Shown piece after piece: positions 10,459-12,795 of a DNA stretch of 33,207 bases. Position 1 is the stretch's first letter; each line of letters opens with the position of its first letter. The stretch is taken from NCBI GenBank assembly GCA_947053545.1, contig CAMRSY010000016.1, forward strand, positions 1 to 33,207, given 5' to 3'. This DNA comes from an uncultured Clostridia bacterium. GTDB lineage: Bacteria > Bacillota > Clostridia > Christensenellales > Borkfalkiaceae. The translations under genes were made by a program, and so were the position numbers. The notes below the pieces were generated by a model. It did no database searches. It saw only the letters and a program-made list of their open reading frames with translations, and had not been told where the DNA came from.

Positions 10459-11799
10459 TTAATCGTCAGGGTCTATTTCCGGCAATAGCTTAGGCTCTTC
10501 CTTAACGCCTTTATAAAACGCTTTAAGCAAAACGGGCGTTAAAACCGACGAAACCAAAATCAACAATACCGTCATCAACATAAATCCCTGCCCGAGAGCG
10601 TTGACGCCCAAAGCCGAATCGGTAACCTTCTGAGTGACTATAAGCGCAACCTCGCCCCTGGCCATCATACCCACGCCGCCTACCGCGCTTTCCCGCCAGC
10701 TGTATTTAAACGATTTGAAAACGGCGCCGCATCCGACAACTTTGCCTACAAGCCCCGCAATAACGGCAACAAGCGCAAATAGCAGTATCGACGGATTCAT
10801 ACCCGCAAAAGTAATATGACTTATACCAATGTTTGCAAAAAACACGGGGGCAAACAGCGTGTACGAATCCACCTCAACCTGCTGGTCGATATAAACGCTT
10901 GCGCGGTGGTCGGTAGAAAGCACTACGCCGGCAAGAAAGGCGCCCGTAATGTCCGCCACGCCGAAAATTTTTTCGGCAAGCCAGCTGTACCCGAACAGCA
11001 CTACCAGCGAATACACCGAAATGCGGTGCTTGCCGGGCCAACGTTTGTCAAGCCATTTAAAAACTTTTGATACTACCCAACCCAAACTTATGGCTACAGC
11101 GAAAAACGCAACAATCATAATTACCGTGCCGTACCAGGTTGCCTTAAACGCTTCGAAACCGTTTTCCGCAGTAGCGCCGCCCTTTGCAAAGCCCAGTACA
11201 ACGGATAAGAGTACGATACCTATAACGTCGTCTATAATTGCAGCCGAAACTATAGTAGTGCCGAGTTTGGTATTAACTTTCCCCAGCTCCTTTAAAACCG
11301 AAACGGTTATAGCCACCGACGTTGCCGTTAAAATGGTGCCTATAAATACACATTTGAAAAGATTGTTTACGCCAAGTCCGATGTTGGGAAACGCAAGCGA
11401 AACCGAAAAGCCCAGCAGCATAGGTACGGCTACGCCTGCGCACGCTATAAGAGCGCTTGCAAGTCCCGTATTTTTAAGGTCTTTTAAATTTGTTTCCAGT
11501 CCCGCGCCGAACATTAAAAGCAAAACGCCTATTTTCGAAAAAATTTCCAACCCGGAGTTCTGCCCTTTTTCGTTAACTGCCAAATTGAAAAGCGCGCGGT
11601 AGCCGTTACCCTCAAAACCTATCAGCGAAACGCCGCAAAAGTCGCCGAAAATGGCGGGGCCTATTAAAACGCCCGCAATTATAAAACCCAAAACCTGGGG
11701 CAACCCCAGCTTTCGGAAAATAAGCCCGAACGTTTTTGTAAAAAATATTATAATCGCCAGCACGGCGACAAAGCCCAAGCCGTCGTCAACGTAAAACAT
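10459..11799 (-). CDS. CPA2-family cation/proton antiporter (Kef/NapA-like)
   Basis: This is a membrane antiporter that exchanges H+ for Na+ or K+. The 446 residues contain about 12 hydrophobic segments; the family motifs FRKLGLPQVLGFIIAGVLIGP (about 28-48, read as two helices), MFGAGLETNL at 96-105, TATSVAITVSVL at 158-169 and the ion-binding aspartate pair in AIIDDVIGI (D190, D191) are visible. The C-terminus is a short acidic tail; no TrkA-N/RCK domain is fused. Which ion it carries cannot be decided. It is a single-gene unit with an extended -10 promoter upstream. Confidence 0.92.
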   Translation of the reverse strand: MFYVDDGLGFVAVLAIIIFFTKTFGLIFRKLGLPQVLGFIIAGVLIGPAIFGDFCGVSLIGFEGNGYRALFNLAVNEKGQNSGLEIFSKIGVLLLMFGAGLETNLKDLKNTGLASALIACAGVAVPMLLGFSVSLAFPNIGLGVNNLFKCVFIGTILTATSVAITVSVLKELGKVNTKLGTTIVSAAIIDDVIGIVLLSVVLGFAKGGATAENGFEAFKATWYGTVIMIVAFFAVAISLGWVVSKVFKWLDKRWPGKHRISVYSLVVLFGYSWLAEKIFGVADITGAFLAGVVLSTDHRASVYIDQQVEVDSYTLFAPVFFANIGISHITFAGMNPSILLFALVAVIAGLVGKVVGCGAVFKSFKYSWRESAVGGVGMMARGEVALIVTQKVTDSALGVNALGQGFMLMTVLLILVSSVLTPVLLKAFYKGVKEEPKLLPEIDPDD

Positions 11800-11849: not shown

Positions 11850-11943
11850 AATAATTTTAAAAAAGGTTAGCGTTTCACTATTATATAATAAAATTTTTTT
11901 GCCTTAAAGGAAAAATTTTCACAAAAAATTTTTTAAAAACCTA

Positions 11944-11971
11944 TTGACAACCTGTTAGATTGTGATATACT
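11944..11971 (+). promoter_or_regulatory. Strong promoter of the unidentified RNA
   Basis: Perfect TTGACA (11944-11949), a 16-bp spacer, then TATACT (11966-11971) preceded by TGA, an extended -10. About 60 bp of A/T tracts upstream look like an UP element. Such a combination is typical of highly expressed stable RNAs. Confidence 0.85.
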
Positions 11972-12177
11972 TAAAGTACAAAAAGAAAATAACTTACAAA
12001 AAATGTTAGCTGGCAACATTAATCGGGAGTAAGCTATTATGACCTATAAGTAGCGGCGAAAGCCGGACAAGGAATTTTAAAATTTAATTTACAGTATCAA
12101 GTTAACCAAATTGAGCGGATAGCTTAAAGCAACCGCCCGGAATACCTGAATTACAGTATTGCAAAAGGAGTAGGTTT

Positions 12178-12222
12178 ATGAGAAAACTGTTTTGCAAAAC
12201 TAACGAAGATAAGGTAAGGTAA
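12178..12222 (+). CDS. Possible 14-codon ORF inside the structured RNA
   Basis: ATG to TAA encodes MRKLFCKTNEDKVR. An AGGAG ribosome site (12166-12170) stands seven bases before the ATG. The site and start codon lie in the loop of a potential 8-bp hairpin (TTGCAAAA 12159-12166 with TTTTGCAA 12190-12197), and GGAGT can alternatively pair with ACTCC at 12223-12227. It may be a real small peptide, a regulatory uORF-like element or chance. No similarity is recognised. Confidence 0.35.
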   Translation: MRKLFCKTNEDKVR

Positions 12223-12377
12223 ACTCCGATGTACAAATTTTCAGAAGGAATCTGAAATCCGAAACGGTTTATTTAGCAACGGCGGCGTGTACAGCCAAAG
12301 TTGCGCGGGTTCAACCCAAATGGCGTTATGCACCGTGGGATGTTGATTCCGAACCTAAAACTAAATAAAAATTTTCA

Positions 12378-12404
12378 CCCCGCGCGACGCATTGCGCGGG
12401 GTTT
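12378..12404 (+). terminator. Terminator of the structured RNA
   Basis: CCCCGCGC (12378-12385) pairs with GCGCGGGG (12394-12401), then TTT and an A/T-rich tail. A tract of A and T precedes the stem. Confidence 0.85.
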
Positions 12405-12559
12405 AATATTATTCAGCGCTTTAACTCTTCCGCCCGCCCACTCCCCTACCTCTATACCAATAAGAAGCCCTGTTTTAAACCCTTCGGAATAAAAAGCATT
12501 TTTGCAGTATATTCTCAACAATTATAGCCACAGCAACAATTATGTTTAGAATTATAACA
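12405..12559. other. Intergenic stretch without recognised features
   Basis: From the RNA terminator to the XRE promoter I see no hairpin, ribosome site or credible ORF on either strand; it is merely AT-rich toward its right end. Confidence 0.5.
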
Positions 12560-12588
12560 TTGTCAAGTATTTGGCTATACATTAAAAT
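12560..12588 (+). promoter_or_regulatory. Promoter of the small XRE regulator
   Basis: TTGTCA (12560-12565), 17 bp, then TAAAAT (12583-12588). Transcription is expected seven bases after the -10, at 12595, which is the A of an ATG. Confidence 0.75.
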
Positions 12589-12594
12589 ATGACT

Positions 12595-12795
12595 ATGATT
12601 AGTTTTACTCCGTTTTGGAAAACGCTGAAAGACAGCGGAAAAACAACCTACACTCTTATTAACAAATATGATATAAGCAGCGCTACTATTTCGCGTTTGC
12701 GAAATAATAAAGGGATTACTCCCGTAACCGTAAACGATTTGTGTAAAATACTTGAGTGTAGAGTGGAAGATATTTTAGAATTTTTAAAAGATTAG
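12595..12795 (+). CDS. Small XRE-family (Cro/C1-type) HTH regulator
   Basis: A compact DNA-binding regulator made almost entirely of one HTH_3 domain: FWKTLKDSGKTTYTLINKY, then SSATISRLRNNKGITPVT and VNDLCKILECRVEDILEFLKD. From this ATG the protein has 66 residues; an ATG two codons earlier (12589) is in frame. The promoter places the transcript start at 12595 and no ribosome site is visible, so this start is chosen as leaderless. The stop is TAG, at the base of a strong terminator. The target is unknown; the structured RNA just upstream is an obvious candidate neighbour but no link is shown. Confidence 0.9.
   Translation: MISFTPFWKTLKDSGKTTYTLINKYDISSATISRLRNNKGITPVTVNDLCKILECRVEDILEFLKD

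What the first reader, a model, noticed from the sequence alone, without database searches (positions are those of the whole stretch)
11880..12404. Unidentified large structured RNA with a very strong promoter
Seen: a perfect TTGACA, extended TGA-TATACT, A/T-rich upstream element, then about 430 nt with at least nine hairpins (including a GAAA tetraloop on a CGGC/GCCG stem), several possible pseudoknots, no normal gene, and an intrinsic terminator. The layout is that of an abundant stable RNA, not of a leader for a downstream gene. The invariant motifs of tmRNA, RNase P RNA and SRP RNA are absent. It could belong to a known class of orphan RNAs such as raiA, or be undescribed.
Basis: partly seen in the sequence, partly recalled or inferred. 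Interest (0 to 1): 0.8.

Follow-up and report, generated by a model that had tools for sequence, protein, structure and literature searches.

The report
Structured RNA carrying tiny tandem ORFs
An undescribed family of gut bacterial RNAs, driven by a very strong promoter, folds into a conserved shape, probably pairs up with copies of itself, and carries several miniature reading frames of a few codons each, which suggests an RNA whose fold is tied to ribosomes.

Summary
Window 11944-12404 is a free-standing gene: extended -10 promoter, ~425-nt RNA, intrinsic terminator. No Rfam family matches; tmRNA and 6S RNA have their own genes. Homologues occur throughout the genus (probably Candidatus Coproplasma, Borkfalkiaceae) and, much diverged, in five further genera of its family; none in 362 genomes of other families. 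Covariation supports the fold (3' domain, 42 loci: 92% of cells paired, 18 of 23 pairs changed on both sides). Two features were missed. (1) It carries tandem mini-ORFs behind Shine-Dalgarno sites (window: MTYK*, MRKLFCKTNEDKVR*, MYKFSEGI*), 3-6 times more than shuffles in six genera (some loci chosen by layout) and duplicated as modules in some species; peptides are weakly conserved. (2) In the genus, the 5' hairpin has a 7-nt loop whose 6-nt core varies among nine hexamers yet stays self-complementary in 52 of 52 loci, the accepted signature of a symmetric kissing-loop homodimer. Codons near the end of ORF3 form one strand of the 3'-domain closing helix, so translation and that helix exclude each other. 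Best reading: a translation-coupled, self-dimerising structured RNA with unknown target. Replacement of hibernation factor HPF was tested and not supported.

The parts
11944..11971 (+). Promoter: TTGACA, 16-nt spacer, extended -10 TGA-TATACT
   Evidence: aligned in 28 loci of three genera, TG 28 of 28
11976..12001 (+). Conserved 5' leader (GTACAAAAAGAAAATAACTTACAAAA); inferred transcript start about 11978
   Evidence: A4 alignment; model R2 hits; start site inferred from the -10
12002..12020 (+). 5' hairpin AATGTT-A-GCTGGC-AACATT; loop hexamer 12009-12014 self-complementary (with two G.U pairs in this species), proposed kissing-loop dimerisation site
12024..12029 (+). Shine-Dalgarno site of ORF1
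12039..12053 (+). ORF1 MTYK, stop UAG
   Evidence: 35 of 46 distinct genus loci; dN/dS 0.26
12054..12065 (+). GNRA hairpin CGGC-GAAA-GCCG directly after the ORF1 stop
   Evidence: 100% paired in 33 rows, 2 of 4 pairs with changes on both sides
12165..12170 (+). Shine-Dalgarno site of ORF2, beside or in the loop of a possible hairpin TTGCAAAA (12159-12166)/TTTTGCAA (12190-12197)
   Evidence: hairpin read by eye and present in the fold
12178..12222 (+). ORF2 MRKLFCKTNEDKVR, stop UAA
   Evidence: 46 of 46 loci have an ORF2
12229..12255 (+). ORF3 MYKFSEGI, stop UGA; its last codons GGA AUC are the 5' strand of helix P1
   Evidence: 46 of 46 loci have an ORF3; dN/dS 0.38 against 0.87 and 0.93 in the other frames
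12218..12367 (+). 3' structured domain: P1 12247-12252/12345-12350, P2 12264-12268/12332-12336, P3 12276-12280/12300-12304, P4 12307-12309/12315-12317, P5 12323-12325/12329-12331
12284..12296 (+). Apical part of P3, GGC-G-TGTACA-GCC, second self-complementary loop (suggestive only)
12377..12404 (+). Intrinsic terminator

Best explanation
A free-standing, probably abundant regulatory RNA of the family Borkfalkiaceae whose fold is coupled to translation. A strong promoter makes a ~425-nt RNA; in this genus two copies join through the self-complementary loop of the 5' hairpin. Ribosomes start at two to four strong initiation sites and translate only a few codons each; the act of initiation and termination matters more than the peptide. 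ORF1 terminates against a GNRA hairpin. Codons near the end of ORF3 are the 5' strand of P1, so a terminating ribosome keeps the 3' domain open and the domain closes when translation falls. The RNA would thus switch state with translational activity and act in trans through the 3' domain. Shown: gene limits, conservation, covariation, conserved initiation sites, self-complementary loop, overlap of ORF3 and P1. Inferred: transcription, translation, dimerisation, the switch. Unknown: the target.
For: Covariation: (42 loci, 137 cells changed on both sides against 46 in shuffles, 0 of 500 shuffles; much lower when partners are slid). P1, whose 5' strand is ORF3 coding sequence, is 97% paired with 5 of 6 pairs changed on both sides. 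SD+ATG mini-ORFs per RNA against shuffles: 3.17/0.56, 2.80/0.54, 2.27/0.61, 2.00/0.35, 1.75/0.53, 2.75/0.92 in genera g1, g27, g28, g29, g128, g131 (see limits). Module duplication in L036, L064, L080, L200. Frame test: dN/dS lowest in the real frame for all three ORFs. Loop: 52 of 52 loci self-complementary, at least 14 changes between nine hexamers, no partner elsewhere in the first 430 nt in 45 of 46.
Against: No expression or ribosome-profiling data. ORF2 shows little coding constraint (dN/dS 0.69 against 0.85 and 0.96). ORF1 is missing in 11 of 46 genus loci, and none of eight sister-genus g27 loci has the self-complementary loop. The 3'-domain model does not recognise other genera, so the ORF3-P1 overlap is shown in one genus only. 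The pseudoknot is weak. In genera g29, g128 and g131 some loci were picked because they showed mini-ORFs. No target was found.
Confidence: 0.45

Rival explanations
1. A polycistronic micropeptide mRNA: the small peptides are the product and the structure only controls expression and stability.
For: dN/dS below 1 for ORF1 (0.26) and ORF3 (0.38); ORF2-like cistrons are multiplied in seven loci (L007, L013, L046, L053, L058, L060, L064); a sister genus keeps the motif SDLRKL in four of five loci read.
Against: Peptides are not conserved between genera while initiation sites are; some ORF1s encode only MH, MG or MDK; ORF2 constraint is weak; a helix strand runs through ORF3.
Confidence: 0.2
2. An untranslated ornate homo-oligomeric RNA of the OLE/ROOL/GOLLD kind; the SD and ATG motifs belong to the fold.
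For: Self-complementary loop switching, as used for OLE and GOLLD in PMC12286853 (passages); covarying multi-helix fold.
Against: SD plus ATG is enriched in six genera with different bodies (partly chosen loci); frame-specific synonymous changes in ORF1 and ORF3.
Confidence: 0.15
3. A ribosome-tethering or hibernation RNA: a kissing dimer with several initiation sites holds idle ribosomes and replaces protein HPF.
For: HPF (PF02482) is absent in 16 of 16 genus genomes and 19 of 19, present in 9 of 9 genomes of other families.
Against: All five g29 genomes in which I read the RNA also have HPF; HPF-less genera g126 and g130 show no R2 match better than E = 1.8e-4. Replacement of HPF is therefore not supported; ribosome tethering as such is untested.
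Confidence: 0.08
4. A leader or attenuator of a downstream gene.
For: Tandem leader-peptide-like ORFs and a terminator.
Against: None of six window neighbours is constant downstream; the HD-domain gene, where adjacent, is convergent. A terminator follows the RNA in the genus loci read, except L025, L026, L028 and L029, where I did not see one.
Confidence: 0.05
5. The SD sites act only as ribosome-bound stabilisers of a trans-acting RNA (STAB-SD-like, recalled).
For: Strong SD sites spread along the RNA.
Against: A start codon and a fixed 4-codon frame would not be needed.
Confidence: 0.07

Closest known systems
OLE, ROOL and GOLLD ornate homo-oligomeric RNAs (PMC12286853)
   Same: Large bacterial orphan RNAs with complex folds; symmetric kissing loops whose internal sequence switches between palindromes (passages read)
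   Different: No sequence or structure match in Rfam; shorter; carries tandem mini-ORFs; the exact leader pattern was not found in IMG/VR, whereas ROOL is a phage/prophage RNA (passages)
Dual-function RNAs such as RNAIII and SgrS (recalled)
   Same: Structured RNA with a small ORF
   Different: Several mini-ORFs of 2-20 codons in tandem, duplicated as modules, peptides hardly conserved
Leader-peptide attenuators and uORFs (recalled)
   Same: Translation of a tiny ORF excludes an RNA helix
   Different: Own terminator and no constant gene found downstream
Retroviral dimerisation initiation site (recalled)
   Same: Hairpin loop with a 6-nt palindrome near the 5' end; GCGCGC and GTGCAC occur in both
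   Different: 7-nt loop; bacterial; no homology claimed
tmRNA
   Same: Structured RNA with a short reading frame
   Different: A separate tmRNA gene is present; canonical SD/ATG starts

Membership tests
raiA, OLE, ROOL, GOLLD and every other Rfam 15 family | Covariance-model score at or above the gathering threshold | tested here: not met
   0 matches in the window; none of these among 11 chance matches at E<=10
tmRNA | tRNA-like domain and tag frame in this gene | tested here: not met
   ARAGORN finds none in the window; the genome has tmRNA at G000:C28:18694-19077
6S RNA | RF00013 match | tested here: not met
   No match here; 6S at G000:C38:3712-3917
RNase P RNA and SRP RNA | Rfam match in this gene | tested here: not met
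   their own genes were not searched for
Ornate homo-oligomeric RNAs (as a kind) | Covariation of a symmetric loop between palindromes | tested here: met
   in this genus only
Ornate homo-oligomeric RNAs (as a kind) | Observed oligomer | not testable with these tools
   needs native gel, mass photometry or cryo-EM
Dual-function or translated RNA | Conserved SD plus start codon, frame-specific substitution pattern | tested here: met
   weak for ORF2
Dual-function or translated RNA | Ribosome occupancy or detected peptide | not testable with these tools
   no Ribo-seq or proteomics
Cis-acting leader or attenuator | Conserved gene downstream on the same strand | tested here: not met
   six window neighbours only; another conserved downstream gene was not excluded in every locus

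The most novel reading that the evidence does not exclude
A dimeric RNA machine built around miniature start-stop frames: each copy offers two to four strong initiation sites that ribosomes occupy for only a few codons, and the kissing dimer (perhaps rings through a second self-complementary loop in P3) brings these ribosomes together, so that the RNA senses or sequesters translational capacity. It would be an RNA whose working parts include initiating ribosomes.
Probability: 0.15. Interest if true: 0.92.

Novelty: new variant of a known kind. Interest (0 to 1): 0.75.

Why it matters
Structured orphan RNAs, self-assembling RNAs and tiny translated ORFs are each active open questions, and here they meet in one gene found in 19 of 19 genomes of the genus in a family-wide draw. 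The hexamers that switch while staying self-complementary make RNA homodimerisation directly testable by mutate-and-mix, and the overlap of ORF3 with helix P1 gives a concrete, falsifiable link between ribosomes and RNA fold.

Tried and rejected
Known RNA family: rejected. Genus-restricted gene: first suggested by the 3'-domain model (9 of 297 genomes, all in the genus) but wrong; the leader model and reading of loci show five further genera. HPF replacement: predicted from the dimer idea, HPF found absent in the genus, then rejected because genus g29 has both. Symmetric DNA operator instead of an RNA loop: disfavoured, because the extra nucleotide puts the arms out of register in all 52 loci and the stem re-registers in L014/L015. 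Second palindromic loop in P3: only suggestive (7 of 18 extended P3 hairpins, 0 of 24 short ones, against 64 of 540 shuffles); the L011/L061 copies have an intramolecular partner. Pseudoknot in the 3' domain: perfect by eye in L008, L010 and L016 but 63% of cells over the set. Phage origin: exact leader pattern not found in viral contigs, a narrow test. Broad scan of hairpins with palindromic loops: 84 of 389 against 19.8 of 271.4 in simulated sequences; by my count 43 of the 84 are the 5' loop itself and 11 come from the ORF3 start, and the rest was not used as evidence.

Rows dropped: the first 3'-domain alignment used 17 of 46 loci, leaving out those with large inserts and two subclades; R1 found 42 of 46 sources, not L025, L026, L028, L029. 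In one search, 67 rows were printed: 52 of the genus, 7 false anchors (L076, L077, L079, L083, L100, L132, L135) and 8 of genus g27; 4 of these 15 gave no 7-nt hairpin. One search used 45 loci (L027 not parsed). In one search three loci (L102, L199, L208) were not parsed, and L206, L211, L213-L216, L222 and L223 were not given to it. Of 11 stretches of g29 fetched, five showed the mini-ORF layout.

Full report
What is there. The window lies in a 1.5-Mb draft genome (G000, 85.6% complete). Between a divergent antiporter gene (10459-11799, minus; CPA2 type by its look, not run against a family library) and a small HTH gene (12589-12795, plus; likewise) stands an independent transcription unit: TTGACA-16-TATACT with TG before the -10 (11944-11971) and an intrinsic terminator (12377-12404). 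A search of its own genome gives one match. Rfam 15 gives none.

Homologues. A nucleotide search finds it in 28 of 37 genomes of its genus and 0 of 24 genomes of other families. With up to three mismatches, the leader pattern is found in 19 of 19 genus members of a 151-genome family draw; 29 of 132 genomes of other genera also match, but the reversed-pattern control hits about 22 of those 132 by my count, so most are background. Named relatives are 31 contigs of Clostridia MAGs, one of them Candidatus Coproplasma excrementipullorum, a genus placed in Borkfalkiaceae, Christensenellales by PMC8035907 (passages seen); that the window's genus is Coproplasma is likely, not proven. Reading hits outside the genus showed the same layout (promoter, leader, mini-ORFs, in most an ACAACTGAATA-like 3' end and a terminator) in genus g27, and promoter, leader and mini-ORFs in g131. 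A sequence-only model of promoter plus leader, trained on 19 g1, 8 g27 and 1 g131 loci (R2), then gave E <= 5e-8 in g1 19 of 19, g27 17 of 18, g28 14 of 18, g131 3 of 3 and g128 4 of 5 genomes (for g128 only model positions 1-47 match). Genera g28 and g128 were not in the training set. Reading loci confirmed mini-ORFs in g28, g128 and, with weaker R2 matches, g29. In the order, at E <= 1e-6, 28 of 396 genomes match, all in this family; 0 of the 362 from other families. R2 includes the promoter, so partial matches were not counted as homologues unless mini-ORFs were seen.

Structure. The 3' domain (12218-12367) has a closing helix P1, a second helix P2 and three hairpins. On a MAFFT alignment of 17 chosen loci the structure including a trial pseudoknot forms 78% of cells; on a model-fitted alignment of 42 of 46 loci, without the pseudoknot, 91.8%, with 18 of 23 pairs changed on both sides and 137 such cells against 46 in shuffles; sliding the partners by one column drops pairing to 47%. 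The shuffles do not keep relatedness and that alignment leans towards the structure, but the P1 changes (GAAATC/GATTTC, GAGGTC/GACCTC, GGAATC/GATTCC, GGGATT/AATCCC) are visible in the raw sequences. P5 is the weakest helix (73%). The 5' part has the stem of the first hairpin and the GNRA hairpin after ORF1 (94% and 100% paired in 33 rows).

Self-complementary loop. In 52 of 52 distinct loci of the genus examined the 5' hairpin has a 7-nt loop holding a self-complementary hexamer: 44 Watson-Crick at loop positions 2-7, one with two G.U pairs (the window, GCUGGC), seven AGCGCT at positions 1-6. Eight Watson-Crick hexamers occur (GGTACC, GCGCGC, AGCGCT, GACGTC, GCTAGC, GTGCAC, GGCGCC, CGCGCG); a random hexamer is Watson-Crick self-complementary with probability 1/64. 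On a tree of the ORF2-3' region (45 tips) at least 14 changes between hexamers are needed (tree support not assessed). In 45 of 46 RNAs the complement does not occur elsewhere in the first 430 nt. Adjacent loop bases cannot pair within one chain, the argument used for OLE and GOLLD in PMC12286853 (passages read). So intermolecular pairing is the best explanation. None of the eight g27 loci has such a loop, so dimerisation by this element is, as far as seen, a trait of the genus.

Mini-ORFs. Of 46 distinct genus loci, 46 have ORF2 (10-20 codons) and ORF3 (8-11 codons); 35 have ORF1, four codons followed by the GNRA hairpin (the pattern asked for UAG, but, which did not, 34 of 34 four-codon ORFs at this place end in UAG). 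ORF2 SD cores are GGAGG in 38 of 46 with 7-9 nt to the ATG in 42; ORF3 spacing is 8 nt in 42 of 46. SD+ATG mini-ORFs exceed simulated shuffles in all six genera, one g28 locus having none by the strict rule. With each locus used in one pair only, dN/dS is 0.26, 0.69 and 0.38 for ORF1-3 (17, 18 and 21 pairs); in the shifted frames ORF1 has no synonymous change in one and 2.16 in the other, ORF2 0.85/0.96, ORF3 0.87/0.93. Counts are small, and the all-pairs estimate (0.25, 0.52, 0.62) is not independent. Modules are duplicated: ORF1 plus hairpin twice in L036 and three times in L080, ORF2 three times in L064 and twice in six further loci, three MxA-stop modules in L200. Peptides differ between genera while initiation sites persist, so initiation, not product, seems to be selected.

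Mechanism. Codons near the end of ORF3 (the last two in the window) are the 5' strand of P1 in the genus. A ribosome at the ORF3 stop must keep P1 open. Six bases separate the ORF2 stop from the ORF3 start, favouring re-initiation. Together with the 5' hairpin next to the ORF1 SD this suggests a translation-coupled switch acting in trans. This is inference; no expression, binding or target data exist.

A tested prediction that failed. If the dimer tethered idle ribosomes in place of HPF, HPF should be missing where the RNA is. HPF is missing in the genus (0 of 16, 0 of 19) and present in 9 of 9 genomes of other families. Within the family it occurs in 51 of 151 genomes, in eight of 18 genera. 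But g29 has HPF in 17 of 17 genomes, and the five g29 genomes whose RNA I read are among them. Replacement is not supported.

Literature. Searches for such an RNA listed no paper that describes it, judged from titles and starts of abstracts; passages were seen in PMC12286853, PMC8035907 and PMC6429828 (a pipeline for structured RNAs that also reports short ORFs). The library holds open-licence papers only.

Limits. Genomes are mostly draft MAGs; no R-scape; shuffles are first-order simulations. In one search the non-g1 loci were partly chosen by layout: g29 loci were kept because they showed mini-ORFs (5 of 11 stretches), the first g131 locus came from a scan for mini-ORFs, and where a stretch held several promoter-like sites the script kept the one with most SD+ATG sites; the g1, g27 and most g28 loci came from leader, pattern or model matches. 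Homology across genera rests on promoter, leader, layout and 3' end, since I did not align the bodies.

Noticed in passing
12229-12234 and ORF1/ORF3 starts in L190-L221: At initiation sites of the form CCR-ATG the second codon is NAC in 76 of 87 cases, and outside the genus in 34 of 37 (TAC 16, AAC 10, CAC 6, GAC 2): all four codons of the tRNAs that can carry queuosine (recalled). Unexplained; could also be an initiation context.
   Followed up: partly
whole genomes: The ribosome hibernation factor family PF02482 was not found in ten of 18 genera of this family, including the window's, although tmRNA and 6S RNA are kept in the window's genome.
   Followed up: partly
L200 (genus g131): Three tandem modules of SD-ATG-NNN-GCG-stop followed by a CCCTCC...GGAGG hairpin and TAAAATAAGTTC; genomes G337, G352, G365 and G418 have two or more R2 matches each at E<=1e-6, not all read.
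   Followed up: partly
L101, L105, L119, L120, L123, L157: In genus g27 the ORF2 SD lies in the loop of a possible hairpin whose stem contains the start codon (CATATCG-GGAGGTACGA-CGATATG).
   Followed up: no
12284-12296; L003, L051, L055, L018, L024, L009: Self-complementary hexamers (TGTACA, TGCGCA, CTGCAG, ACCGGT) near the tip of extended P3 hairpins, a possible second dimer contact.
   Followed up: partly
12539-12566, minus strand: Promoter-like TTGACA-16-CATAAT pointing towards the RNA from the 3' side; a terminator-like stem on the same strand lies at 12402-12377.
   Followed up: no
10459-11799: The antiporter gene is found beside the RNA in most genus loci by tblastn, not in L004, L007, L008, L013, L025, L026, L028, L029, L046, L050, L053, L058, L060 or L064, some of which are cut by contig ends.
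   Followed up: partly
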